Origin: Anadara kagoshimensis
Taxonomy: Eukaryota; Mollusca; Bivalvia; Arcoida; Arcidae
DNA length: 64,000 nucleotides
Assembly (NCBI GenBank): GCA_021292105.1
Contig: CM037861.1
Coordinates: forward strand, 49,304,634 to 49,368,633
Reading direction: 5' to 3'
Within the stretch, counting starts at the first letter, position 1. Each line of letters opens with the position of its first letter. The notes beneath the pieces are model-generated. The model was given only the letters and a program-made list of their open reading frames with translations. It was not told the origin of the DNA and did not search any database. The translations under genes were made by a program, and so were the position numbers. Shown one piece after another: positions 1,454-60,800 of the stretch.

Positions 1454-2254
1454 CTAATGACATGTCATTAAACATGACAATGTGTTCTGATGAGTTCTGT
1501 CATTTGTTGTTGTTCTTTTATGTTATATGACAATGCTTTTGCTCGACCCGACTATCTGACTGTAAGTTGCGTATTCCTTACTTCATGGAGCTAATAAGAT
1601 ATTAATATATTAAAATATTGGAATTAACCAATCTGCAGCTGAAAAAACATATACCTGACAAAACCCAATGTTACCGGTAATACATGCAAGGACACGAAGC
1701 AACAAACCAACTTTTAACAATACATTCTGAGACTACTGATTATACAACTTATACCTTTGATAGAGGAGCTGCAGGTAAAATAGTATTCAGTGACGTTGTT
1801 GAAGTACTTTTGGATAGTCCATAACAATGTGCTCAGTAGTGATATCGGAAGCAACACTATTGAAAACAATGTAGCAACATTAATCTAAACATTGGCCATT
1901 GTTGTTATCAACATTGCCCATTGTGTTAAGCTGGTAATAGCAACTTCGTTGCAGTTGCTGAAACTAAATCGGAATCACTTTGAATAATCAAATTTAAAAC
2001 AAATTAAAAGAAAGTGTTTATCTAAAGATATGCACTTCAGAAATTACATATATTTTTGTATCATGGAAACACTCGTTTATGGCTGACAGGTTGGTTTTTA
2101 TGTGTTTCATTTAATTTTGTTTGCATTTATTGTTTATCAGAAGATCTACCTGTCAATCAAAACGATCTAACAACCAGCCACAATTAAACATTTATGGTAC
2201 AAAAACCAAGATTGATGACAACAGACTTCTCCTTCAAATATATCGTAAAAGCTG
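1454..2254. other. No gene seen
   Basis: AT-rich spacer with no supported feature. A short open frame on the minus strand from about 2421 has no recognisable domain. Confidence 0.45.
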
Positions 2255-2291
2255 ATGTATCGTCTGCTTGAGAAAGTTTGAGGTAAATGAC
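2255..2291 (-). repeat. 37-bp segment repeated inverted at 4239-4275
   Basis: The reverse complement of 2255-2291 is identical over 37 bases to 4239-4275 (starting GTCATTTACCTCAAAC). The two lie about 2 kb apart and bracket the two oppositely oriented hammerhead repeats. A few further bases match imperfectly on each side. Confidence 0.85.
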
Positions 2292-2861
2292 ATTTATCCC
2301 CTGATTGGTACTGATTGTTTTTTCTCGAAAATTTAATAAAAAAGATAAAAATGTTTATAAACAATTTGATTGATCTGAATAAATACGTCTTTTCTGATTG
2401 GTCAAAAATTTCCGGAAACAAAATTTAATTAAAATAAACCGAAGGTGTTTTGGGATCGTTCGTGTACTTTTTCTTATAAAACACTCAAATGGTAAAAACA
2501 AAATTTATTAAAAAAGTATTTTTATTTTTGGGATAGTTTTCTTACATCATTAATAAAACTCAAATAGTTTCAGATTGATGAAAATTCTAGTAATTGTTAT
2601 CTTTTTGTTTGTCATGTTTTGTTTTGTTCCTGTTATAAATGTTGTCGTTAATTAACATGCGACAAATCTATCACTCGATGGCAAAGATGATTGGGTTGAT
2701 TAGTACTGAACAATATTTTGTTCTTAAATCCAGTCTTGTGAAAAGTACGGAGTTTTATGTTCATCGTTTTCATTTCCTTGTTTTGTTTGCCTGTTTCTCT
2801 TCTTAATTTTATCTGTTTATTGTCTCTAATTGCAGTAGCTTTTGGTAAATAAATTACATAT

Positions 2862-3090
2862 ACTACCAGTTTTAATTTTACAACACAAGACGGCCATTTC
2901 GGAATATAATTCCTCATCAGTAGTGCTTGGACCGAAATTGTGAAACCAATTATTTTCAAGATGTTCGAGGATACCCAAAGGATCAAAATATATTTTACCA
3001 AATTAAGCTAAGGAAATGCTTTGGGTAAGGGAGTAAACCTTAGTTTAAGAATAATTTAAGATTTTAAATAACAACAACTTTAAAATAAAC
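2862..3090 (-). mobile_element. Hammerhead-ribozyme repeat (retrozyme/PLE-like), copy 1
   Basis: Dispersed repeat of at least about 230 bp, closely related to 35565-35800 and to the reverse complement of 46880-47095. On the minus strand it reads: AACTAAGG block, CCTTAGC block, CAAAATATATTTT-type AT stretch, CACAATTT..GGTCC, then the hammerhead motif, then TAAAATTAAAACTGGTA. The ribozyme therefore sits near the 3' end of the element's sense strand. No reverse transcriptase is encoded here. It may be a retrozyme (a non-autonomous ribozyme-bearing retroelement) or a fragment of a Penelope-like element end. Confidence 0.7.
2882..2927 (-). ncRNA. Type I hammerhead ribozyme, core intact
   Basis: Read on the minus strand: stem I strand AGCACTA, core box CTGATGA, stem II GGAAT-TAT-ATTCC (5 bp, 3-nt loop), core box GAAA, a very short stem III with TGGCC, then the cleavage triplet GTC (plus-strand 2889-2891) and the second stem I strand. 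All conserved catalytic positions are present. Stem I has one mismatch and one G-U pair here, and the second stem III pair is a wobble, so activity may be lower than for the copy at 4098-4143. Minimal hammerheads with a 2-3 bp stem III are typical of Penelope-like elements and retrozymes. Confidence 0.75.
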
Positions 3091-4090
3091 AATTTTTGCT
3101 GTTCCCACTCATTTCGTTTTTGTTGATATATATAAGCAATCACCAATTTAGTACAAGATGACATTTCAACTTTTAACCTACGAAAGATTACAGAGGGTTG
3201 CTACGTGCATTGTCAAGCAGTACCAACAGCTAGAGTGTCTAACTTTTGAGTTACTGTGTCTTCGGTGCCACTGTGGCTATAGATATACCAATACCACACT
3301 ATTTATCACAATAAATTCAAAGAATAAAACTATTAGATGCCAATTTTGATATGTTAACAATAGAAAATTAAAAAATATCTTTTTTAAACAAAAATTAAAC
3401 TCCCTCATTTTAAAACAAATAAAACCTATTATGATAAAGGATATATTGTGTGAATTAATAAGCCTTAAGCTTAGAAAACATTAAACTACTTAAGTTCTAA
3501 CCGATTATCTCGGAATTAGGGAGACAATTCGTCTTTGAAGAAGCATATATCACTTTAAATTAATTAAAAAACTTAATTTCAGCTGAAGAAAGTTCAAAAC
3601 AATTCATATTAATTTGAAAATGTTTCTACACTTATTTTAGGTGCGTTTAAAGTCACAAAAATATCATAGATTATTTCACAAAAGGCATCATGATTTTGAT
3701 ATATCACGGCGGATTTTAATTCATTAAGGAATAAATCATGTTCATTTATTACAAATGTATTTGATCTTAGATACTTGTATGGTATAATGATATTTTTAAT
3801 CTATCCGGGAGGTACACAATTCATGTTATTACCGGGATATTATCATATACGTTATGTTATGTCATCATGACAATTACAAATCCAAGATGAACGACATTGT
3901 TTTTACAGTTTGCAATAACAAAACACAAACAAAATCATTTATGAAACAAAACAAAAACAAGTTGCATAAAATAATTAAGAAATAAATAATCAGGAATGAA
4001 ACAAACAAATCAAGGAAAAAATGAAATAATTATAAAATAAATAAAATACAAGTATTTATATAAATAATTTTAAACTACAATCAAATATTT
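3091..4090. other. No gene seen; very AT-rich
   Basis: Very AT-rich spacer with A-rich runs around 3900-4080. A 63-codon open frame at 3158-3349 has no recognisable domain. Nothing else supported. Confidence 0.45.
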
Positions 4091-4160
4091 TGGCCCAAGC
4101 ACTACTGATGAGGAATTATATTCCGAAACGGCTGTCTAGTGCTGTAAAATTAAAACTGGT
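4091..4160 (+). mobile_element. Hammerhead-ribozyme repeat, copy 2 (5'-truncated)
   Basis: Carries the 3' part of the same repeat, from TTGGCCCAAGC through the ribozyme to AATTAAAACTGGTA. The body seen upstream in the other copies (the GGTCC..CCTTAGC part) is absent, so the copy looks truncated at its 5' side, as is common for elements mobilised by reverse transcription. Confidence 0.7.
4098..4143 (+). ncRNA. Type I hammerhead ribozyme, best-preserved copy
   Basis: Direct reading on the plus strand: stem I AGCACTA (4098-4104), CTGATGA (4105-4111), stem II GGAAT-TAT-ATTCC (4112-4124), GAAA (4125-4128), short stem III/loop CGGCT (4129-4133), GTC (4134-4136), then TAGTGCT (4137-4143), which pairs with the first stem I strand over all 7 bases. 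The predicted self-cleavage site is after C4136. Every invariant hammerhead core base is present. The closed stems are I and II, while stem III has only 2-3 pairs. Established knowledge: such minimal motifs are often weak as monomers and act better as dimers. Confidence 0.85.
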
Positions 4161-4212
4161 AAAATATGTAAAATAAATACCTTTGAGGTATATTGAGGTT
4201 ACTGATGATATA

Positions 4213-4305
4213 TTCCAGAATTTGGATGGGCATTAAACGTCATTTACCTCAAACTTTCTCAAGCAGACGATACATTAGTTTCCAGAATTTGGATGGGCAT
4301 TAAAC
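4213..4305 (+). repeat. 26-bp direct repeats flanking a transplanted 37-bp segment
   Basis: The 26 bases at 4213-4238 (TTCCAGAATTTGGATGGGCA and on) recur exactly at 4280-4305. Between them is 4239-4275, an exact reverse-complement copy of 2255-2291. This looks like a templated insertion with local duplication (template switching), not a standard transposon. Confidence 0.85.
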
Positions 4306-5780
4306 CTAAATAACAAAAACTGTATCAGTTAAATTTCCCTCCAAATTTCTCTGAATTTATTCCATGGTTCCAACATTCTTTGTCTTGTTTTTGTTTGGTT
4401 GTTTCACCATAGGCTTGTATTGTGTTGTGTTCTTGGCTGTATTGGCTATTGCCAATTATATGTTGTTCAGTTGCTTTCTTTTTTCTGATATAAAAACAAT
4501 GTTCATGTTATAAACTCTTGATATGGTGAATATGAGCTCTCAGTGCCATACAAGTTTGAGTTACGTATGATAACTACTATAGGTTTTTTTATAAGTTATG
4601 CCTTTTATCAATGACGGAGTAAGGTAATTTGGAACAGGTAATTGACAACAGCAAAGGCATTCAAAAACACGAAAATCTTTGCAATACAATTACATATATC
4701 ATAATAAGTTGTCATGAATACAAAATCGTTTGTGTATCATAAAGGCGTGCATTGCCTTGCATAAATAAATATGGCGCAATGTAAATGTTGGCATGTTCAT
4801 TACACAAGTCATTATGAAAAAAGTGTTATATGTTTAATTTGGTAGCACTTTTACTAGTTTATGCACTATTCCAGCTGTTGCATAACAATATCTATATATA
4901 CACAACTATATAGTTTACAATTATATGCAATATTAAAATTGTGAGATATAGTGTGCGTATTTACAGATTGTTTTGGAAATTTGAATATTGGTATTAGTCA
5001 TTTCAGTATCTCATTGATAATTATTACACGATATAATCTTTCCGGCAAAACTTGCTGAGATTTTAATTTTGTTTGAGTATATTTTAGATGAGTTTTATAG
5101 TTATTGTGCTATTTCGCTGTGTAATATACATTATCATACGTACTTTTGTCTTTGATTGAAATATACATGCTGTCAATCAAATAAATTACATGTATATTTC
5201 TTGCTGTTTTTAAATTATCTTTTACATAATCACAGAGGAGTTACTACTAATGCGCAAATCTTCAAAGACTATTTATCTTTTAAATTCTACGGTTACTTAC
5301 CTAGAGTAAATCATATAAACTTATAATCTGAAGTTACTCATAGAAAGTAATTGACCCTAAAACATATAGCATTGAACTACTGCATTTAGGGAATTTTCCT
5401 TTGTATAGATAATTGAGGTATATAATTCTTTAATAAAGTGCACATACCCACACACACATACATATTTGAAAAGTATATTTACGTCTGTGGTTACTGAAAC
5501 ATGGTATAATTTCATCATTAGAATTAGAGAAACCTTAGGGCTTGATTTCAGAAATCCCATGACAAATATATTCAAATACAAAGGACAAGCAACAAAATAA
5601 GCATTTTTCAAAGCACATTGGTTAAACGTTTCACAAAGATGAAAAGGTACAAGTAATGTGTCCTGAAATGATAGCTACACGTACATTTGAACTTTATGTA
5701 CTCACAAGCACTGACCATATATAAACAGGTGAACTACCTTAGCCACACTACCACCATGCCCTATATTACACATTATACCA
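4306..5780. other. No gene seen
   Basis: AT-rich spacer. A short CA-rich run lies near 5449. The 84-codon minus-strand frame at 5357-5611 has no recognisable domain. Confidence 0.45.
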
Positions 5781-5885
5781 AGTTCAATTTTACAGCACTA
5801 GACGGCCGTTTGGCCGTGATTGGACCAAAATTGTGAAGCAATTGTTTTAAGATGTTGTATGATACCCAAAAGGACCAAAAAAATA
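5781..5885 (-). mobile_element. Hammerhead repeat, copy 3, catalytic core deleted
   Basis: Contains CAATTTTACAGCACTAGACGG, then GACCAAAATTGTGAAGC and ACCCAAAAGGACCAAAA, in the order of the other copies. The block that would encode stem II and CTGATGA is missing, so the ribozyme cannot fold here. Confidence 0.65.
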
Positions 5886-7090
5886 TATGCAACTCTTTTG
5901 GAATAATATGCTAGTACATTTATTCAAAAACAGCACCGAAATTTAAACGTATTCAATTGAACAATTTGCGTTTGTAAATGGCTGTTTTGTGATTTGTTTT
6001 GGCAGTTAAAATGCATTTTTGCCATGAAATGAAAGAGGAATAAGGTTCCGAAAAATGAGCCTAGCTTTCACCCAAAAAGAACGAATATATAGTTTATAAG
6101 AGTGTAGAATTGAGATTATATTAATATCCATTTGCAATATAAAAACAAAGACAAGTTAATAATATAAATAAGTATTCTCTGCTGTTACGTTGCTATATTT
6201 GTGTTGAAATATAATTGAGCTTTATATTTTAAAATTTAATTTGACATAAAACGTTTATTGTTTTTTTACATTAGTAAAATAGTTTGTTATCCAAATTATC
6301 AGCCATGCTGGTAAATGATGTGTCACGTCATTATTACGACGTGTAATTCAAGAATTTAAAACTCTAAAATTAAACATTTTGACAAGTGACGAGCGTATAG
6401 AACAAGATAAAGCCACGAACTAGGGGACTCAATCGTTATGTTTTAAGGTCAAAGGCCAGTCATATATCTCGTTGTTAAAGAGATTCCTTTTGTTTCTGAA
6501 TTGGTATATCTCGTCAAACTATTCCTTTGATGTATACAAAATCAAACTTAATGAATAGAAATCTTATCAGTCCTGTTTTGAAAATCACCCAACTTGTAAA
6601 GTCATAAATCAACTTCTTCAACAGAAATGTTTAAAAGAAAAATAAGATATTTCACAAATAGGGGTGCTGTATAACATGTATGTGTCCAAGATTAAAAATA
6701 TATAGATGAGGTTTTCTGATTTATCAGGCTTCGTCTGAAATAGCTCATAAATTTAGCTGTAAAGTGACATAGTTAGAGTCATGTGTGATATTGTCAATGA
6801 GACCTACTTATCAATTAGATTTACGATCACGGGACAAAAGGTGGGCAGTTTTGACTGTCTGAGCCGGATAACGTAGATTTAAGTTTTGATACCAATGCTA
6901 GCTCATTAAAACATTCAAAAGGATTAATGGTTTACAATATTAGCTTACAATATACGAGTTTTAATAGTCCACTTGAACCTTGGAGAATAAACAAATTATT
7001 AACTGTATTTCTTCTGTGTTGCTCTGTTACCAAGTTTCCGTATTGCATGACAGTTGATATGTTAACTGTTATGCTTCATAGTTTATGTCT
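5886..7090. other. No gene seen
   Basis: AT-rich spacer, no supported feature on either strand. Confidence 0.45.
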
Positions 7091-7220
7091 AAAATTTTGA
7101 AATTGCAGCACTAGATGATCGTTTTAGAATAACATTCCTCATTAGTAGTGCTCGCACCAAAATTGTGGAAATCCAAATATTTTAATGATGTTGCCGAGAT
7201 GTATTTTACCAAAGCACCCA
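7091..7220 (-). mobile_element. Hammerhead repeat, copy 4, decayed
   Basis: The ribozyme region is 7107-7152 on the minus strand. Stem I strands (AGCACTA/TAGTGCT) and stem II are still recognisable, but the core reads CTAATGA, the GAAA box has lost its G, and the cleavage triplet is ATC. ATC can still cleave in principle, but the core changes should inactivate it. Part of the repeat body follows to about 7220. Confidence 0.65.
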
Positions 7221-17560: not shown

Positions 17561-17890
17561 AGCGACAGGTCAGTTGGCAGGGTGCTTGCTCCGTAAGTTA
17601 AGGGTGTCGAGGATTTGGTCTCTGGTCAGGTCTGACCCAAGAATTGAAAAAGTGTAGTGACTGTTCGCTCGGCATTGAAAAATGAATGCGGGTCATTCGG
17701 ACAAACTTTAAAAACCAAGGCCCCTTGTCACGGTAGGCGTGGCACGATAAAGAACGCTCACTGCATAATGCCATCACCCCAAAGCACAGGTAAATATTTC
17801 TGCATCTACACCTATAGCTGGTGATGTCTCGATATAAGTGAAATATTATTGACTTAGAAGTTAAACCCCATTAATTAATGATCAATCAAA
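17561..17890 (+). mobile_element. tRNA-headed SINE, copy 2 (diverged)
   Basis: Follows the full SINE at 29058-29408 block by block: GGTCAGTTGGCAGGGTGC and GCTCCGTAAGTT (tRNA-like head, box A worn), GGTCTGACCCAAGAATTGAA, TAGTGACTGTTC, GCATAATGCCATCA, CTATAGCTGGTGATGTCT, AAGTGAAATATTATTGAC, GTTAAACCCCATTA, then a degraded tail of ATCA units. Diverged and nested in the hAT-like element, so inserted after it. Confidence 0.85.
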
Positions 17891-27600: not shown

Positions 27601-29045
27601 TATTTCACCACCTCCTGTATCAAACATGTATAACCATCTATACCTACCTCTACAGGTATGCAAGTGTTGAGTACAAGGGAAAAACAAAATCTTAACTATT
27701 ATCCGATGTTTTGGATAACTTGATGCATGTCGATGTTATGTTTACTTCTAATGTATTGAAGTTTGTATTCAAATTTCAATTTCTTTCACTTTTGAAATTG
27801 CAATCTAACAACTATGACGTCATTAAATGTTTGGTTACACGAATTTATCGTTTGTAATGTAATTTATCACTGTAGAATTATTAATGTATATCCCTCGTTG
27901 ACACCTGAAACGCTTTGAAGTTTGACATTTTGGATTTAAAGCCAATTTACAGATTACTACAATATAACTATGTATACAAAGGTACAAGGATTCTAATCTT
28001 CGTTATCTTACTCGTGATAGCTGCTCAAATTTATCATCAAATCCACATTGCTAAGATGTAATGGATATCTGTATATGACAAGATATGGCCATGAATACCC
28101 TGTTGTGAGAGATAACCCCTTGGTGCCCTGGGTACACTTCAGCACAACGAAAGGCGAGAATACCAATCACGGCTAGGACTTACAGATGACAAATTAGCGT
28201 GTAAATTTGTGTAAAATAGATTAAATATTTACATTCCTGTCTCGACTGGGTAAAAAGTACTCCGTTTTCAAGTAGAGTTTGATAGTCATGTTTGATGACT
28301 GTTCAAAGCCCATGTTATCACAGGTCATACTTTGAGTTTGCTGTTAAATATAACTTATAGGTCTGGTTAAACTGGACCATATCGCACTACAACTGATTAC
28401 ATATCAACTCAGTAGATAGATTTCAAATGCAAACTAATAATAGTAATTCAAGTTGTTTCTTATTCCAAAATAATTATGGTCGTATCCTTTAAATTTTAGT
28501 CACTATAATAGAACTCTTTTTCATAGTAGTTTTTGTATTTAAGGCCGGCTTTTTGATGATACTAATACAATCTTTCCCTCTGTACCCAAACATTCTCAAA
28601 GAGTGTTTGAATATCAATTTTTGTTATAAACTATAATATGTTTATAACCGTCGATAATGCCCTCACCGTTGCAGTTATCTAAATGATCTAGCTTTTTTTA
28701 AAAGTGCAAATGCATTTTAAAAAAGCGAAACGTCTTGTTTTATGTCTTAGCCTTATTTCATTAGCAAAGATAAGAGTTACTAATGACAACATCCGTGACC
28801 GAAAGTGTAAGTCCTTATATACCATGTGATTTAGCAAATTATAAATCACTGAAAAGGTGCAGAATGCATGGGAAACCCAAAAATGATCAATTGTGTCAAC
28901 CAAGCAAGGGTTTAAGTGTTTTGTTTTCCTTAATTGTTTTTAATAGATAACACACTTCTAATAAGACATAGAAAAAGGTTCTTGTACTTGGATTTTGTAG
29001 ATATGATAATGTTTTTTTTTTATTTTACAATTTAAGTCACAAACG
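27601..29045. other. No gene seen
   Basis: AT-rich spacer, nothing supported. Confidence 0.45.
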
Positions 29046-29420
29046 TCTTCAATGTACCACTGCGGTAGCTCAGTTGGTAGAGTGCTCGCTCCGTAAGTGG
29101 GAGGTCGTGGGTTTGAACCCCGACCGGGTCTGACCCAAGATTTGAAAGTGGGTAGTGACTGTTCAAACACTCGGCATTACGAAATGAAAGTCACAGTTCT
29201 TTCGGATGGAAACTTAAAACTTAAAATAAACGAGGTCCCGTGTCAGAGTGTGCTTGGCACGCTAAATAACCCTGCTGTATAATGCCATCAGCGCAACGCA
29301 CAGGCAAAATTTCTGCACCTTCGCCTATAGCTATATATAGCTGGCAACGTCTAGATATAAGTGAAATATTCTTGACTGGGGCGTTAAACACCATTACTCA
29401 CTCACTACTCTTCAATGTAC
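29046..29420 (+). mobile_element. Full-length tRNA-headed SINE with perfect 12-bp TSD
   Basis: SINE body 29058-29408 (351 bp) flanked by exact TCTTCAATGTAC duplications (29046-29057 and 29409-29420). The tRNA-like head has box A TAGCTCAGTTGG (29066-29077) and box B GGTTTGAACCC (29110-29120), the internal RNA polymerase III promoter. A conserved body follows (TCTGACCCAAG, TAGTGACTGTTC, AACGAGGTCCCGTGTCAG, TATAATGCCATCAGCGCAA), then a 3' domain (AAGTGAAATATTCTTGACTG, GCGTTAAACACC) and a short ACTC tandem tail. It would be moved by a LINE reverse transcriptase in trans. The tail resembles molluscan V-SINE/Meta-SINE type families, but I cannot name the family with certainty. Short frames on both strands here are the SINE read through. 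Confidence 0.95.
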
Positions 29421-30828
29421 TTGTCCTTGAATGCCCGCAAGAGATTTTACTTGCACCTTCTCGAAACACCACATTTTTTTTTTTGAAGAATTAAAATATT
29501 TGTAAATGCATATTGTGTGTTTGTTTCTGAATTTTCTTTTGATATGTTTGAAAGTAATAATCTGTATTTTGCAACAATCATCATGTCGGGTGGCATTAAT
29601 TATGTCACAAAAATACGGCTTCTTTGATTTTGATACAGACCTCAATATAATGAAATGGGATCCACATTTAATGTGTTTTGTTGATCAAAACAAAACTTAT
29701 CTATTCTTTAATCATCTCACGAAAACTGAAGAAAAATACATAAAATATAAAAAACATGCATCTTATATGTCTTTAGATTTTTGTATATTAAATCATTATA
29801 ATTTGTAAACAATTCTATGCTAACGTCAATCTGTAAAATAATCGATGATTTAAGCCTGAAAACATTACTCTATTAATGTTTGTAAGAGATAAATCACACA
29901 CTGGAAGATTTAATAACAATTTGTTGATACAAACGAGAACATTTCTACTGCCAGTTTCAATTTAACTTTTCTTATTATAGTCTCATTATCTTAGTTTCAA
30001 AATTAATCGGTACAATCCTTATACAAATTCAGCTGATGTAATTTCTTTCAGCAGCAGCAGACGATATCCACTAGAAACTGGTCAATGTGATTATTTCCAA
30101 CATTTGACGTCGTTCTTAATGAAAACATATCTACCTAGTGAATCTTTAAGGCGACTAAGATATATGTCTACACATTTTTTCCGCTTATATCGGCTTTAGA
30201 ATACTAATCAGGCTCTTCTTTGACTACTTTACACATTTGTCAAGTCATGAACGCCATTTTCTAACGTAATTTTACCATTTCTTCAGAAATCAATCTCTCA
30301 AACATGCATTACAGAAGATTAATTGGCCATTTGCGACAGATTGGATTGCAATGAGGAAGAATGATGAAGCGAACGTTGAGTACTGAAACATTGTGGCTCA
30401 AGGCAAAGGATCTGTGGCGAAAATAAAGTAATTTACCATATAATAAATCACAATTTCCCCTTCATCCTTAAATGTAATAGATAAATCCTTCGTGTCGAGT
30501 TAATGCTTGTTTTGTTTCATTGGTAACACCACGCACTACCAACATTTTACAGATGTATAAAGTGTTGTTTTCGAGATAGAAAACAATTATACTATTAGGT
30601 TCCAGTTATGTTCTAAATTTTGAAATTCTTTCCAACTTCATAGCAGCTGATATTCGAGGTTTGTATTTACCAAGCATATTGGAATCTAAAAACAAAAACA
30701 ATTAAACTGATGCTTATTTTTTAAAGCATTTGTTCGTAGGTTTTTACTTATTCCCACATGCTTTCTTGAAGTATAGCGAGTCTGTACTTTAGTAGTTCAA
30801 GTGAAGAAAGCAAATTATACCTAAAATC
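29421..30828. other. No gene seen
   Basis: Spacer. A 100-codon frame at 29506-29808 shows no recognisable domain and is AT-biased. Nothing else supported. Confidence 0.45.
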
Positions 30829-30950: not shown

Positions 30951-31844
30951 AAAAATAGATTTGAAAAGATACAGTGCAACCTATAACAAAAACACGAAAT
31001 ATAAAAAGAAGCAATGGTAGATAAATAACATATAACCTGTCATTGATCCCCTCTAACATTATCATTCCGCATATACATTCATTAAAATTGAAAATGTATA
31101 AATATTGAATCTCGACTTAACATCCAAGGAAAATTTCTGACACCTTTTTTGTACAGAAAGGTATGAATGTCCAAATTCCAGTTTGTTTCACCAAATATTT
31201 CCTGAACTTGAAGAATAGGTACGGAATGTTATGAATTTCCAAATACCAATTCATATTCGAAGGATACGTTCTAGCCACACATTAATTGTAATTTTTAATA
31301 ATATCACTTATAAATTTCTTCTTATGGAAGAGGAAACCAAAATCATTGTTTCGTTCACTCCCGACGACGTGGATTTTTTCTTTTATTTCTTTTTGCAGTC
31401 ATCACGTGACTTTTTTATTAGTTGTGCAAAGACCAGCCGATTGACACGTCACGAACTACCCATTTACAAATCCATAATTTGTTACACAGAGGAAAACCGA
31501 TTGAAATGAGTTGTAAAAGCCATGTTGCGATGGAAATAATCAACATTTACACGTGTTGTTGCGTCCGATAATGCACGGACAGCCCTGCCCATGGGACATA
31601 ATATCCCACTAGGTGACTGAATGATTTATTTTAACGCGTGTGCACTTTGGTCCTTGCACTAATGAACGACAAAACACATGTAAATGTTTATTTTTCTTAA
31701 TTGAAAGTATCTACGAAATACTGTCTCTTTGAAATTTATTTTGAGAATATTTATTTTATTGTAATTGTTCAATTTATTTATAATTCGCATGGCTTTTTTA
31801 AAAATTTTATTTTGGTTTTTCACTAAACATCCAAAGAATATATT
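30951..31844. other. No gene seen; upstream of mariner remnant
   Basis: I looked here for the N-terminal part of the mariner transposase and for its left terminal repeat (expected CGAGGGCCGTTCAAAAAG) and see neither. Confidence 0.45.
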
Positions 31845-32330
31845 TTGATACCTTTAATTTTTCCACTGAATGTTATTAATGTCAGTTTTGTTGTAAAATG
31901 TTCTAACCGGAAAGCTTTATTTAAAAATATTTACAAATGTCTCTTGTCTATTGACAATGCTCCTGCTCACAAATTTAAGTTGGTGACTGAATTTTTTTTG
32001 TACAAGGAACGTGTTGTTGTTTTACCTCATCCACCTTATTCACCTGATCTTTCACCGTGTGACTTTGATCTCTTTCCTAATCTTAAGAAATACCTTTCTG
32101 GTCGTCGATACAGATCTCGTTCATCGCTAGGTTCAGCAATTCATCAGTTTCTCAATGGTATATCCAAAAAAGAATGTGCAAATGTATTTAGAAAATGGAT
32201 CGAGCGTCTTAAAAAGTGTGTAGCCGTTAAAAGTGATTATTTTGAAGGAATGAAAATAAAATATCATAAATAAAACGTCTTAATTTGTGTTTTTATTATG
32301 AAGGACAAGACTTTTTGAACGGCCCTCGTA
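31845..32330 (+). pseudogene. 5'-truncated mariner transposase remnant with 3' TIR
   Basis: The frame 31845-32273 (142 codons) encodes the C-terminal catalytic part of a mariner-family transposase, the enzyme that cuts and pastes the element at TA sites. From about residue 38 it reads SIDNAPAHK (second catalytic Asp), then VVVLPHPPYSPDLSPCDFDL (third Asp in CDFD) and the usual tail LSGRRYRSRSSLG, FRKWIERLKKC, YFEGM. I count 35 residues between the two Asp, one more than the DD34D standard. A run of eight T in that interval may explain it. The first ~37 residues do not look like transposase, and the N-terminal DNA-binding domain and first catalytic Asp are absent, so it is a dead fragment. Downstream, AAGACTTTTTGAACGGCCCT CG then TA (ending 32330) has the form of a mariner 3' inverted end. 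Confidence 0.9.
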
Positions 32331-34745: not shown

Positions 34746-35564
34746 TTTTTTCGCTTTTTGCTTTTTAGTTCCCGTTTATCTTAATTAATTGATAAAATAC
34801 AAAACATAATCTAAGACAAATTTACATACATTTTGTATTTAACCCAAAGAAAGGAGAAATATAAAGACCTCTGCTATTTTTTAAAATCGTGGTATATTCC
34901 TTTGGCATATAAGTTTTCATTTCCCATTAAAACAAATTTTTTGCGGAATACAAAGTGGTTTCCATCAATAAAAAAAATTAACAATGAAATAAATTTAATG
35001 CATACCAATAGTTTAGCCGAAGAATTTTATTAGAATTTCGGAATGCTGTCTAGAAACAAAAGATGATATCCACAAAATTGAAATGTATGCATACCTAAAG
35101 CGAAGAAATGGGAAAATAATTCCAAAATAGTAAAAAAGACTAATGGGACAAATTAAATAAAAGATCATGTTCTAAAGTTATTTTAATGTGCTAACAACTA
35201 TCTTAGAAATACAGACATTTATAAATCGATAGCAGAGAATCTTGACGCCAAGAAAGCTACCAGCAAATATGGCGCAGACTGTTTGTTATCGAGATTACCA
35301 TAAAAACTAATAGTAAAATAAAATTGTGATATAGTATACAAAAGTAACGTAATTGTGCATTTTAATGAACAATTTGTAAAGGAACGGAAGAAATTATTTA
35401 TAAACTCGTAAAACAGCTTTGCACTTGGGTATAATTGTGCATATTTCTTTCTGTTTTTAATTAAAAAACCTTTTTTAAATGTATATAATGTTTTAACGTC
35501 ATTAAACATTATAGAAAAAATGTCGAGAACTTTTAAATTGATATAATCATTACATACTATACCA
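34746..35564. other. No gene seen
   Basis: AT-rich spacer, nothing supported. Confidence 0.45.
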
Positions 35565-35800
35565 GTTTTAATTTTACAGCACTAGACGGCCGTTTCGGAA
35601 TGCAATTCCTCATTAGAAGTGCATGGACCAAAACTATGAAACAAAAATTGCTTTCAAGATGTTGAAAAGATACCCAAAAGGACCAAAATAAATTTTACCA
35701 AATTTAGCTAAGGAAAGACTTTGCATGAGGGAGTATGCCTTAGTTTTTTAGGAATTAAAAATTTTATGTAGCAGCAAATTTAGACAATAGCATATGTTCG
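35565..35800 (-). mobile_element. Hammerhead-ribozyme repeat, copy 5 (long copy)
   Basis: Good reference for the repeat body: TACCAGTTTTAATTTTACAG, the ribozyme region (35578-35622), GGACCAAAAC, TTTCAAGATGTTGAAAAGAT, CCCAAAAGGACCAAAAT, TTTAGCTAAGGAAAGACTTT, GCATGAGGGAGTATGCCTTA, then about TAGCAGCAAATTTAGACAA. On the minus strand the core reads CTAATGA instead of CTGATGA. Stem II (GGAAT-TGC-ATTCC), GAAA and GTC are intact. The G-to-A core change should abolish or strongly reduce cleavage. Confidence 0.75.
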
Positions 35801-46694: not shown

Positions 46695-46879
46695 AGAAGA
46701 AAGTAATGTAAAGGTGAAAAACATACACAAAGCAAACATGAAGCATAAAGATATTGGACGAAATTAAGAATACTTATTAATTCATAACGGTTGCCCATAT
46801 ATACACACGTTTATCTTTAAAACATTCTGATAGGAATAATATTTAACAAGAACTGTAATTTTGTCTAAATATGCTGCTA

Positions 46880-47095
46880 GTTAAAATATGAAAATCCCCA
46901 AAAACTAAGGTATACTCCCTCATGCAAAGTATTTCCTTAGCTTTTGGTCAAATATATTTTGGTCCTTCGGATATATATCAACCCCTTGCAAACAATTTTG
47001 TTTTCACAATTTTGGTCCAAGCACTACTGACGAAGACTTATATTCCAAAACAGCCGTCGTAGTGCTGTAAAATAAACACGGGTATGATATTAAAT
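46880..47095 (+). mobile_element. Hammerhead-ribozyme repeat, copy 6
   Basis: Plus-strand copy with full body: AAACTAAGGTATACTCCCTC, ATGCAAAGTATTTCCTTAGC, ATATATTTTGGTCCTTCGG, CACAATTTTGGTCC, then the ribozyme region 47020-47066. The core reads CTGACGA (allowed, since position 7 is variable), but stem II is broken on its 5' side, GAAA has become AAAA, and an extra G follows GTC. Stem I (AGCACTA/TAGTGCT) is still perfect. Predicted inactive. Confidence 0.72.
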
Positions 47096-47348
47096 TTGAC
47101 CTTTGACAGATAAAACTAAATGTGATACGCGACACATTGTGTCATATTGGAATACGTTTGTGCAAGTTGCATCAAAATACATCTATAGATGTGAAAGTTA
47201 CGGAGCAGACACCGTCTTACACAAACATGGTAATTTTTATAGATCCCTTTAAAACGAAATGTAAGTTCTGTGATATAAATAAAAACTCCTATAGATTTTG
47301 GAAAAATTATGTACCCAGGATCATTATTCGTACCAGTTGAGAAACACT

Positions 47349-54905: not shown

Positions 54906-55363
54906 AATATAAGATTGGGCTAAAGGACTGTTTGTAAGACAGTATGTTCATAACCATAAACACCCGGTACCCAGTATTACTGTCACCTATCCTTATACTA
55001 GTTTATCAAATTTATTTAGCCCCTATATTACACAATAGGTATGTATGTTTGAATATTCAAATTGAAAGGTCAAACGGCCAGACCAAACTTGACGCACTTT
55101 TTACAGTATATGACCATTTTTTGCTGAAACAAGAGATCTGTTGACATCATTAGCGTCGTGGAACAAACACGTTTCCGTGTTATTCAAGACTTCTCGAGGT
55201 TTTCCGTCACGAGAAAATTCGGTTCAAAATGTTCCGAACCGGGTGTTATATGAAAATCTTTATTATACGAGGGGTGGGTGATACTAGTTTTTTTTATCGC
55301 AGGATAGACAAAAATACTTATATCAAAAGTATAGATATGGACGTTATTTAGCATATCTTGAAC
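54906..55363. other. No gene seen
   Basis: Spacer. Two frames (54944-55144 plus, 55184-55366 minus) lack domains. CTTCTCGAGGTTTTCC near 55189 has no partner I can find. Confidence 0.4.
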
Positions 55364-55671
55364 CACTGCGGTAGCTAGCTCCGTAATTTGGAGATCGTGA
55401 CTTCGAACCCTGACCGGGTTTGACCCAAGAACTAAAATTGACTAGTGACTGTTCTTTCACCAAGCAATCTGTATTACGAAATGAAAGTTACGGTTCTTTC
55501 GGGTGAGAACTTAAAATAAACGAGGTCCCGTGTCATGGTAGGATTTGTACGATAAAGAACCCTGTTGTATAATGCCATCAGCGCAATGCACAGGCAAAAT
55601 TTCTGCACCTTGGCCTATAGCTGACGACTTCTCGACATATCTGGAACGTAAAACCCCATTACTCAATTCAG
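55364..55671 (+). mobile_element. tRNA-headed SINE, copy 3 (box A deleted)
   Basis: Begins CACTGCGGTAGCTAGCTCCG: the GTTGGTAGAGTGCTC part of the head is missing, removing box A, while a box B-like ACTTCGAACCCTG remains. The body matches the full copy (TTTGACCCAAGAACT, TAGTGACTGTTC, AACGAGGTCCCGTGTCATGG, TATAATGCCATCAGCGCAA, CCTATAGCTGACGACTTCTC, AACGTAAAACCCCATTACTC). No clear target duplication. Not expected to be transcribed from its own promoter. Confidence 0.9.
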
Positions 55672-58600
55672 CACTCCCTATGTTGATAATCAAAGGCATG
55701 TTTCTTTTTATTGCACCATTATACATGTATATAATATGCAGTACAATATCATTACATATGCATGTTTTATGAACTCTATTGCTTGTATGAATTATAAGAA
55801 GAATGTTTTCTATAAATAAAACGCTGTTGTTCTATAGCAAAATTGGTGGGAAATATAACACTACAAATTGGTGTTCATTCTTCAGCTGTTTATTGGCTTG
55901 TAAGTAAGGTGTAATACAAATGACCGCATTAATCATCATCATCTTTCCCTGTCTGGTCTTATAAATAAAGATGAATGACTTGGTTACATTAGCAGTAAAT
56001 CTAGAACAAATGACCGTCTTAACTATTGTAAAGACATATTAATGGGAAAAATGTCCAATCGAATGTTGTCTGAAGATTGATAATACTAATATCACCTTCA
56101 TGATAAGGACATCGTATACGTGTATGGGGAGGTAGTGTGGTGCGTGTAGGTGTTTGTACTTTGAAAGTAAAGTTCAGTAAATTCGACCATGGCAATTTAA
56201 ACTACCCTTTTTATTTTAAGTTGGTTTTTGAGGAAGTAACAACTGAATTATTGGGGTTAAATATGATTTTCTGAGAGACAATGTTCAGCGGTGACTTGCA
56301 TGAGTTATCTCCCATATAACAAAATATGTGAGTAGCAATGGTTTGAATGGCTGTCAATCAACTCTCCATGCTTTTATAATTAGGCACCGGTGGTGGTCTG
56401 TTTGATTGACAAGTGGTTTTGCTTTAATGATGAAAGTTAGGTGAAGTGGATGGACCAATAACCTTCATCTATCAAAAAGTCACAATGATTTCACACTTAA
56501 AAATACACGAATATTCTAAAATTTGATATAAAAAATGTTTAGTTGGTGAAACAAAATGGGAGGCAATGAGATAATGATTTTTAAACTCCTTACTTTGGAC
56601 GAACATCGCGCACATTGACAACGAACATCGTAGATATACTGTGATGGGGTAGGTTCAAGTATTCTATTTACAGTAGATGGCTATTCATATGACAAAAGAA
56701 TTAAAGTTAATTTTGCTTTATGATATATTTATGTCGTTATTTGCCAAGACGCTTATCGTAAGGACAATGTTTTTTTCTTTGCAATGCACATTAAGCATTA
56801 TCGTCATTTTTACAGAAATACGGGAAAATAAACAATACCAAAATTTTCTCTAAGTTAAATATTTACTGAAACAATTTAAATTTCGTGACAACAGATGTGC
56901 AGGTGCCCGTTTGATAAATGTTTATTGATTGGACGGATATCAAATTAATGCTGTGAAAAATAAATCACTCAATAGCTACTGTTCTTCTAATTATTACACA
57001 AAACTAAAGGATAATCATTCCAGAAAAGTATCAACGGGCTTTTACAGCGCATTTACTTCATTTATCACTCGAGAGGATAAGCTTATAAACGACTTTTGAT
57101 AAAATAACGAGTCTTATACAGTGATTAATCGATTGTTCACACGAGTTCAAATAAAATCTAGCAATATTGAGTAATTGGTTCGGAAAGTCAACTTGTCAAG
57201 TAATTGATCTTTCTTTATCAGTTTTGAATAAAGAACGGGGGCCAGAACTCCCAATTATAAAGATAGATGAGGAAATGTCTTCAATCAAAAAGCTTTAGTG
57301 AATAAACAAAGGTTGAGATAAATTCCATTTACTAGAAGTTAGTTGAAGGAGCTACTAGAAAACTCTATCTCTCATCCCTAACATTCTTTTGATGCTATGA
57401 ACTGTCGAAATTGATAGAGGCAAGACCACTTGATATTGTAAAACTGTCATCCATCATGTTTAAATCACGTGATTACTTTGATCGTTAAACTTATTTAATT
57501 TTCATTAACATATTACAAAATCCAAGCGCGGTGCCTGTTCTCCAGTTGCTAACTTTATATTTTATTGTTGTTGCTATTTTCAGATGTTATATTGATGAAG
57601 GGTCTCTTAGTTACTAAAAGTTACTGAAATGAAAAACAATGCATGGGTACTATTTACGAAACAATGTCCCTGGCTTTTCATATTTTGTTCGTTGCTTTGA
57701 ACATTGATTAAAAAAAATCTAGATTTAACTTCCGATTTTCTTTTTGATAACTCTATACTGTCCGCTGTTTTGTCAGGAGTTTTCGTTAGAAGCTGTTGTA
57801 TAAATTTTAAAAGTAGGAAGTTTTAAAACAAAAATACTTATATCAATCGTAAACATATTTATAAAAGTTATTTTATTACCTTTAAAAACTAAATTATAAA
57901 CTAAATGTACATGAAATATGAGTGTAAGAAAGTAGTGTTTCTTTATTTAAAGTGTTTATAAATTTTAATTCTTAGCTTATACATGTACGACGCAATGTCA
58001 TATAAAATGGTGAAGTAACCAGTGGTTCTTCAAAACATATTATGTGTCTGCTATACATATGGAATATCTATAAAAACCAACCATAACAAGTTTCATCAGG
58101 TTCTCCGTGTGATGACTTTCCCAGTTTTAACTTTTTTAAATGTGGTTCTTACATTATGGTTTTATATTTAACATAAGTACATTTTTGAAGTATTTGATCT
58201 TGTTATGCGAAGGTAAACATCTCCTCTTCAGAAGGAATTGATAGCTATATTAATTATCTTTAAATATCATCTTAATGTAGGCAATATCATGAAATTGAAA
58301 ATCGTTCATCACTCAGCACGAGTCTGACGTTTTATATACGTTACATTATAGCGTATGTCCTTAATAAACTGATGTCTAATTTGATTTAAATCTGCAGAGT
58401 CAGAAGGTTCCCCATTGCTTAAGATACAACAGGCACTGGAACACACCTCAGAGATAAAGAGCCATGTTCTTCGTTTAATATCGTAAAAAAACCTCAATGC
58501 AGCATGGAAATAAAATATCCGGTAATGTGCCCATCGTCTGCTATTATAACCCGCCTAAATATTTACGTATAGCATCAAAGTTAATTTATTTTGCAGTAAG

Positions 58601-60711: not shown

Positions 60712-60800
60712 TAAATTTTGCAGTACTAGACGGCCGTTTCGGAATAAGTTCCTTATTAGTAGTAATGTTCGGACCAAAATTTTGGAAATTACTGGCCCTC
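60712..60800 (-). mobile_element. Hammerhead repeat, copy 7, decayed
   Basis: Plus-strand AATTTTGCAGTACTAGACGG, CCGTTTCGGAATAAGTTCC, TTATTAGTAGTAATG, GGACCAAAATTTTGG. On the minus strand the core reads CTAATAA, stem II is GGAA-CTT-ATTCC-like, GAAA and GTC are intact, and stem I is weakened. Predicted inactive. The body is truncated after about 60800. Confidence 0.65.

What the first reader, a model, noticed from the sequence alone, without database searches (positions are those of the whole stretch)
4098..4143. Intact minimal hammerhead ribozyme in the host DNA
All catalytic boxes (CTGATGA, GAAA, GTC) are present with a fully paired 7-bp stem I and 5-bp stem II, and a stem III of only 2-3 pairs. 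Known in Penelope-like elements and retrozymes, where dimeric RNAs self-cleave and circularise. If transcribed, this locus could yield a self-cleaving RNA.
Basis: partly seen in the sequence, partly recalled or inferred. Interest (0 to 1): 0.75.

Follow-up and report, generated by a model that had tools for sequence, protein, structure and literature searches.

The report
Hammerhead ribozyme in a retrozyme fragment
The self-cutting RNA motif is real, but this copy is a broken-off piece of a small non-coding jumping element (a retrozyme) that is present in thousands of copies in this large genome; the shared end point of those copies hints at how the element is copied back into DNA.

Summary
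Window 4098-4143 (+) is an intact minimal type I hammerhead: 7-bp stem I, 5-bp stem II, 2-bp stem III, cut expected after C4136. Rfam Hammerhead_1 matches it at 24.6 bits, E 1.4e-4, below its cut-off of 34, when 61 bases are given; wider scans list no hammerhead.

It is not a lone ribozyme. It lies in an 89-bp fragment of a 339-bp non-coding repeat with 7 pieces in the window and 7,774 core matches in the 1.1-Gb genome, against 10 for the reversed pattern. Tandem copies reach 5.09 units: the architecture of metazoan non-LTR retrozymes. The commonest stem III (ACGGCCGT) is a palindrome, so cleavage is probably dimeric (inferred).

Extra result: 34 of 48 copies share a 3' end 35-39 nt past the cut site, while 5' ends scatter. 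Reverse transcription thus seems to start at one internal site on RNA that is uncut or re-joined there, like the Penelope-like 'tail'. The partner enzyme was not found. The window copy is almost certainly a dead fragment.

The parts
4089..4177 (+). retrozyme fragment that holds the ribozyme (unit positions 292-339 then 1-41 of a 339-bp unit; 93% to a genomic reference unit)
   Evidence: extends it to 4182 at lower identity
4098..4143 (+). minimal type I hammerhead ribozyme, all boxes intact; 2 of 46 positions differ from the commonest family sequence (4118, 4133)
4105..4111 (+). CTGATGA catalytic box
4112..4124 (+). stem II with loop (5 bp, 3-nt loop)
4128..4135 (+). stem III and loop, ACGGCTGT: 2 bp as a monomer; self-complementary over all 8 bases with two G-U pairs in a dimer
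4136..4137 (+). expected cleavage site (after C4136)
   Evidence: sequence and established hammerhead chemistry (recalled); not tested
4137..4177 (+). 3' tail, the part of the element past the cut site; most copies of the family examined end in it
2850..3082 (-). second retrozyme copy, inverted; core 2889-2920 with the boxes CTGATGA, GAAA, GTC, but weakened stems I and III by inspection
5762..5880 (-). retrozyme copy whose ribozyme has lost the CTGATGA box and stem II
7095..7193 (-). decayed retrozyme copy
35549..35788 (-). retrozyme copy, core mutated to CTAATGA
46861..47097 (+). retrozyme copy, ribozyme mutated
60714..60787 (-). short decayed retrozyme copy

Best explanation
The motif is a dead, 5'-truncated copy of a family of metazoan-type non-LTR retrozymes. 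Proposed cycle: tandem units are transcribed; pairs of minimal hammerheads cut the RNA as dimers through the palindromic stem III; 339-nt monomers are circularised by a host ligase; a reverse transcriptase borrowed from an autonomous element starts at a fixed internal site 35-39 nt downstream of the ribozyme cut and copies round the circle, or along uncut multimers, for 0.2 to 5 units. This leaves copies with a common 3' end and scattered 5' ends. Shown here: the ribozyme anatomy, the repeat family, the tandem units, the common 3' end, the read-through of the cleavage site, and one nested insertion with a 5-bp target duplication. Inferred: transcription, dimeric cleavage, circularisation, and the identity of the enzyme. 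The window copy itself most likely does nothing.
For: Rfam Hammerhead_1 matches the window copy at E 1.4e-4. Genome-wide there are 3,916 + 3,858 = 7,774 core matches, against 7 + 3 for the reversed pattern. Unit spacing is 339 bp in tandem arrays. The unit has no stop-free frame over 49 codons, 34.8% GC, and no tRNA or B box. 3' ends: 34 of 48 copies at unit 35-39 and 42 of 48 at 35-46. Among 20 stretches around listed core matches on C1, 16 at 35-39. The seven window pieces were found by the whole unit, not by the core: five end at 36-41 and two decayed ones at 15 and 19. None of the 48 ends at the cut site; 23 of 48 are longer than one unit, the longest 5.09. Units of one array share 147 of 398 variant comparisons (37%), against 1,227 of 14,609 (8%) between arrays. 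L077 is a young copy inside an older one with GCAAA on both sides. The best two-strand fold of the commonest family ribozyme is the dimeric hammerhead, -34.5 kcal/mol, against 2 x -12.3 for monomers. The same architecture is reported for mussel, coral and axolotl retrozymes (PMC7229834, parts 1-4 of 6 read).
Against: Rfam scores stay below the curated cut-off (24.6 and 28.1 against 34). Covariation is nearly absent: among 86 copies and 14 pairs only one cell changed on both sides and stayed paired, so the copies decay neutrally and give no independent proof of selection on the fold. The dimerisation gain is not unusual against shuffles (53 of 200 as large), and for the window copy the dimeric hammerhead (-30.1) only ties with a misfold. 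The circular fold of the unit is not unusually stable (z -0.54), whereas published retrozyme circles are called highly self-paired. The 48 copies were required to hold a core, so copies that end short of it were not counted. Target duplications are weak (mean 3.26 against 2.72 in mispaired controls, whose maximum was 3.35, 4.60 against 4.17, maximum 4.56). L071 supplies most of the shared-variant signal: without it 57 of 276 (21%). No RNA data.
Confidence: 0.8

Rival explanations
1. The ribozyme belongs to the pseudo-LTR of an autonomous Penelope-like element, and the 339-bp tandem units are pieces of it.
For: The motif is minimal, as in Penelope-like elements. Genes with reverse transcriptase and GIY-YIG domains are present in the genome. 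A fixed tail past the ribozyme recalls the published Penelope-like tail (PMC11167929, parts 1-2 of 4 read).
Against: Among 30 GIY-YIG loci, L043 and L057 hold longer stretches of the unit, in opposite orientation to the gene, and L054 a 28-nt piece past the end of the gene's repeat. But these loci reach only 1.5 kb from the GIY-YIG domain and mostly do not cover the start of the gene, where such ribozymes are reported; only L069 and L070 are longer, and they hold neither the ribozyme motifs nor the tail. Copies of three families (one, three and one copies looked at) run into TA-rich repeats, not into the retrozyme tail. The unit is complete and tandem without any gene.
Confidence: 0.08
2. It is a plain satellite or SINE-like repeat that spread by DNA amplification or LINE retroposition, and the ribozyme is a passenger with no role.
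For: Neutral decay of stems. No RNA data. Tandem arrays can also arise by unequal crossing-over. Two A-box-like matches per unit.
Against: Dispersed copies with a common 3' end and scattered 5' ends are a retroposition pattern, not satellite spread. Copies read through the cut site and beyond one unit, which fits circular or multimeric RNA. No tRNA-like part or B box.
Confidence: 0.1
3. The window copy is a host-adopted ribozyme that cuts a host transcript.
For: Boxes and stems are intact although the element fragment is truncated.
Against: Thousands of copies keep intact cores. The copy is an ordinary truncated insertion with a 3' end like the others. No host gene was shown around it, but introns and exons were not modelled. 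The monomer fold is poor.
Confidence: 0.02

Closest known systems
Metazoan non-LTR retrozymes (Cervera and de la Pena 2020, PMC7229834; parts 1-4 of 6 read), above all the mussel family of about 5,000 copies in repeats of about 350-390 bp
   Same: Type I hammerhead in short tandem non-coding units of low GC, thousands of copies; mussel ribozymes also lack most of the conserved loop-loop nucleotides
   Different: Unit is 339 bp; stem I is an unbroken 7-bp helix; a common 3' end 35-39 nt past the cut is shown here. [quoted passage not shown] Their sequences were not compared with this one
Newt and axolotl satellite hammerheads (as described in PMC7229834)
   Same: Very short stem III, in one axolotl family with a palindromic tetraloop; they act better as dimers
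   Different: Those keep loop-loop contacts in at least one family; here none is evident by inspection
Penelope-like elements with minimal hammerheads and tails (PMC11167929, parts 1-2 of 4 read)
   Same: Minimal hammerhead; copies end at a fixed site downstream of the ribozyme cut; internal start of reverse transcription
   Different: No gene in the unit; no Penelope-like element with this tail was found here; no excess of head-to-head over tail-to-tail neighbours (5 to 5)

Membership tests
Hammerhead ribozyme, type I (RF00163) | Conserved core CUGANGA / GAAA / NUH with three helices, helix I open | tested here: met
Hammerhead ribozyme, type I (RF00163) | Score at or over Rfam's gathering cut-off (34 bits) | tested here: not met
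   24.6 bits for the window, 28.1 for L071; E-values 1.4e-4 and 9e-4. A curated score cut-off, not a mechanistic feature; the core and helices are present
Hammerhead ribozyme, type I (RF00163) | Self-cleavage | not testable with these tools
   needs in vitro transcription
Metazoan non-LTR retrozyme | Type I hammerhead within tandem units of about 150-450 bp | tested here: met
   339-bp units, up to about 5 in tandem; the window copy alone is a single fragment
Metazoan non-LTR retrozyme | Non-coding, GC below 45-50% | tested here: met
   longest stop-free frame 49 codons, GC 34.8%
Metazoan non-LTR retrozyme | No LTR, primer-binding site or polypurine tract | not tested
   not searched for
Metazoan non-LTR retrozyme | Target duplications over 4 bp where present | tested here: inconclusive
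   8 of 35 copies have 5 bp or more, control mean 2.3 and maximum 9; one clear case in L077
Metazoan non-LTR retrozyme | Expressed as linear and circular RNA | not testable with these tools
   no RNA data
Penelope-like element | Reverse transcriptase and GIY-YIG gene in the element | tested here: not met
   the 339-bp unit has no gene; GIY-YIG loci examined do not carry the unit as their own end, though their gene starts were mostly not covered
tRNA-derived SINE | tRNA-like head with A and B boxes | tested here: not met
   no tRNA and no B box in a two-unit concatemer; A-box-like matches only

The most novel reading that the evidence does not exclude
These copies record where reverse transcription of a ribozyme-made RNA circle starts: one fixed internal site 35-39 nt downstream of the hammerhead cut, primed on TT-rich target DNA, and read round the circle up to five times. 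That would make retrozymes target-primed, rolling-circle retroposons with a Penelope-like 'tail', and would give the signature with which to find their unknown partner enzyme.
Probability: 0.4. Interest if true: 0.6.

Novelty: new member of a known kind. Interest (0 to 1): 0.42.

Why it matters
As a lone locus it is ordinary. As a family it is a large new sample of retrozymes. The common 3' end is a testable handle on an open question named in a 2020 review (PMC7761336, passages seen): which autonomous element moves the animal retrozymes, and from what RNA template.

Tried and rejected
Autonomous partner by shared tail: the exact 20-base tail occurs 3,608 + 3,531 = 7,139 times. 214 + 184 = 398 of these lack the usual base at every one of five upstream places. 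By my arithmetic about a quarter of unrelated upstream stretches would pass that filter at this base composition, so up to roughly 1,500 tails could have another upstream sequence; many of the 100 listed are, by eye, one-base shifts of the retrozyme itself, so the true number is lower. No second family with this tail was found; a minor one, or one with a diverged tail, is not excluded.

Two-strand insertion, as reported for a Penelope-like enzyme, would give more head-to-head than tail-to-tail neighbours; 5 and 5 were seen within 1.5 kb. Not claimed.

A hot spot of 5' ends behind a hairpin at unit 102-120: the densest 10-nt window holds 7 ends of 48, but 124 of 2,000 random sets reach that. 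Not claimed.

A hammerhead-like stretch near a Penelope-like gene in L045 has no Rfam support. Not claimed.

The whole-genome Rfam search with RF00163 gave 0, but its 14 controls gave 0 too, so it is uninformative.

Rows dropped: one search used 20 stretches that I picked by hand, holding 26 of the first 38 of 100 listed places (of 7,774); 12 of those 38 were left out. L082/L084 and L085/L087 share flanks, so 18 places are independent, of which 15 end at 35-39. One search kept 48 of 52 elements after removing shared flanks, required a core inside, and left out elements near a locus end; it still holds two window copies (in L001 and L009) and the pair L026/L028, whose flanks are alike. One search used 35 copies of at least 88% identity with a 3' end at unit 30-50 and a readable ATGTAA tail (L026 and L028 both among them). 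One search left L009, L020 and L028 out of its tallies. One search left out L020 and L028, and L015 from the totals because the reference unit comes from it. L091-L093 were fetched and not examined.

Full report
Observation. A descriptor with stem lengths finds one such site in the window and none in 100 dinucleotide shuffles of it on both strands. Rfam at gathering cut-offs is silent on the whole window, and a 501-base search at E<=10 lists no hammerhead. This looks like a filter effect: with 61 bases, Hammerhead_1 matches 4099-4142 at 24.6 bits, E 1.4e-4. In L071 one of five cores is reported, at 28.1 bits, E 9e-4, and none of the three in L015. Both scores are below the curated 34.

What it is part of. 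BLAST of part of the window (2001-6500) against the whole window shows that the ribozyme lies in a repeat. Mapped on a genomic 339-bp reference unit, the window has seven pieces, at 2850-3067 (-), 4089-4177 (+), 5762-5880 (-), 7095-7193 (-), 35549-35788 (-), 46861-47097 (+) and 60714-60787 (-). Of the seven, only the copy at 4105 fits the strict core pattern used genome-wide; the one at 2889 has the boxes but a changed stem III, and the one at 35585 has CTAATGA.

Genome. The window is C5:49304634-49368633 of a genome of 1,115,223,567 bases in 36 contigs. The core pattern CTGATGA-N(9-20)-CGAAAC-N(3-5)-GTC has 3,916 + 3,858 matches, and the reversed control has 7 + 3. Only the first 100 places were listed. 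Five cores in a row at C1:310542-311928 are spaced 339, 339, 339 and 338 bases.

The unit. It is 339 bp, 34.8% GC, with no stop-free frame over 49 codons in a three-unit concatemer, no tRNA and no B box in two units, and two A-box-like matches per unit. Two units of L015 are identical over 339 bases. Units within one array share variants more often (147 of 398 variant comparisons) than units of different arrays (1,227 of 14,609), and differ less (3.5% against 6.9%). Without L071 these are 57 of 276 and 5.6% (from the same table). This fits copying of one circle several times, but DNA-level tandem expansion would look similar.

The common 3' end. In 20 stretches around 26 of the first 38 listed core matches on C1, 16 end at unit 35-39, one at 41, two (shared flanks) at 27 and one at 19. 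In 48 elements from the retrozyme loci, 34 end at 35-39 and 42 at 35-46; 5' starts are spread from 9 to 323; 23 are longer than one unit. These elements had to hold a core, so copies that end short of it are not counted. The seven window pieces, found by the whole unit, end at 36, 38, 39, 39, 41, 15 and 19. Two of the outliers (L017, L023) are followed by a tail again, so their alignments broke early. The longer copies run through unit 37 without ending, so the end is not an artefact of the reference. The copies contain the uncut sequence across the cleavage site; hence the template was circular, or a multimer not cut there. After the GTAA of the tail the next base is T in 32 of 35 and the second is T in 24 of 35; since the unit also reads TTT there, this may be either template or target. 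One nested insertion, L077, gives a clear 5-bp target duplication. Overall the duplications are only slightly longer than in mispaired controls.

Mechanism of cleavage. The commonest ribozyme sequence (27 of 86 copies in the fetched loci) has stem III ACGGCCGT, an 8-base palindrome. As a monomer the active fold (-7.8 kcal/mol) loses to a misfold (-12.3). Two copies of the family sequence fold best as the dimeric hammerhead (-34.5); for the window copy that fold (-30.1) ties with a misfold. The energy gain as such is common in shuffled sequences (53 of 200), so the palindrome is suggestive, not proof. Covariation is almost absent among the 86 copies, as expected for neutrally decaying copies.

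Partner enzyme. Penelope-like genes with reverse transcriptase and GIY-YIG domains exist in this genome, but the copies looked at in three families end in TA-rich repeats, and most loci do not reach the start of the gene. The exact retrozyme tail rarely has a wholly different upstream sequence: 398 of 7,139 differ at all five places tested, which allows at most roughly 1,500 unrelated ones. The partner is therefore unknown.

Literature. PMC7229834 (parts 1-4 of 6 read) describes animal retrozymes and the mussel, coral and axolotl families. PMC11167929 (parts 1-2 of 4) describes internal initiation in a Penelope-like element. [quoted passage not shown] PMC8490949 (passages) was not used. Searches for hammerhead ribozyme with Penelope-like, retrozyme with bivalve, hammerhead with mollusc, retrozyme with reverse transcription, tail and target duplication, dimers, bivalve names and metazoan with Penelope-like showed, in titles and starts of abstracts, no report of a common 3' end in animal retrozymes. 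I did not read the other listed papers or any supplement, and many journals are not held.

Verdict. True observation, known kind of element, apparently a new family. The window copy is a truncated fragment. The family-level common 3' end is the part worth following.

Noticed in passing
window 31827-32273 (+): Remnant of a DDE transposase (mariner-like, by recall): Pfam DDE_3 matches at E 2.6e-6, just under its cut-off.
   Followed up: partly
window 29270-29494 and 55542-55772 (+); 17598-17870 and 28958-29176 (-): Two pairs of open frames with similar peptides (PCCIMPSAQ.TGKISAP.PIA, and SWVRP..NPR.P) suggest further repeats. No Pfam match for 28961-29176 (-) or for 55187-55441 (-), the two frames there that were scanned.
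   Followed up: partly
window 2249-2296 and 4234-4281: 48-base inverted pair, 94% complementary, lying outside the two inverted retrozyme copies at 2850-3067 and 4089-4177; a 26-base direct repeat is also seen at 4213 and 4280. Origin unknown.
   Followed up: no
L039 (G000:C22): A bacterial-type UvrC gene, 28.6% GC, with one in-frame TGA in the GIY-YIG part. This may be a symbiont or contaminant that reads TGA as tryptophan.
   Followed up: partly
L069 2229-2876 / 5723-6360: Inverted pair of pieces of a Penelope-like element with a 762-codon frame (reverse transcriptase and GIY-YIG); the copy looked at runs into a TA repeat.
   Followed up: partly
L045 2747 (-): Hammerhead-like stretch with a palindromic ACATGT in another Penelope-like family; not supported by Rfam.
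   Followed up: partly
G000:C3:24881072-25328209: Local cluster of tail-like sequence preceded by AAAAACTGGTT: possibly a satellite grown from the retrozyme tail.
   Followed up: no
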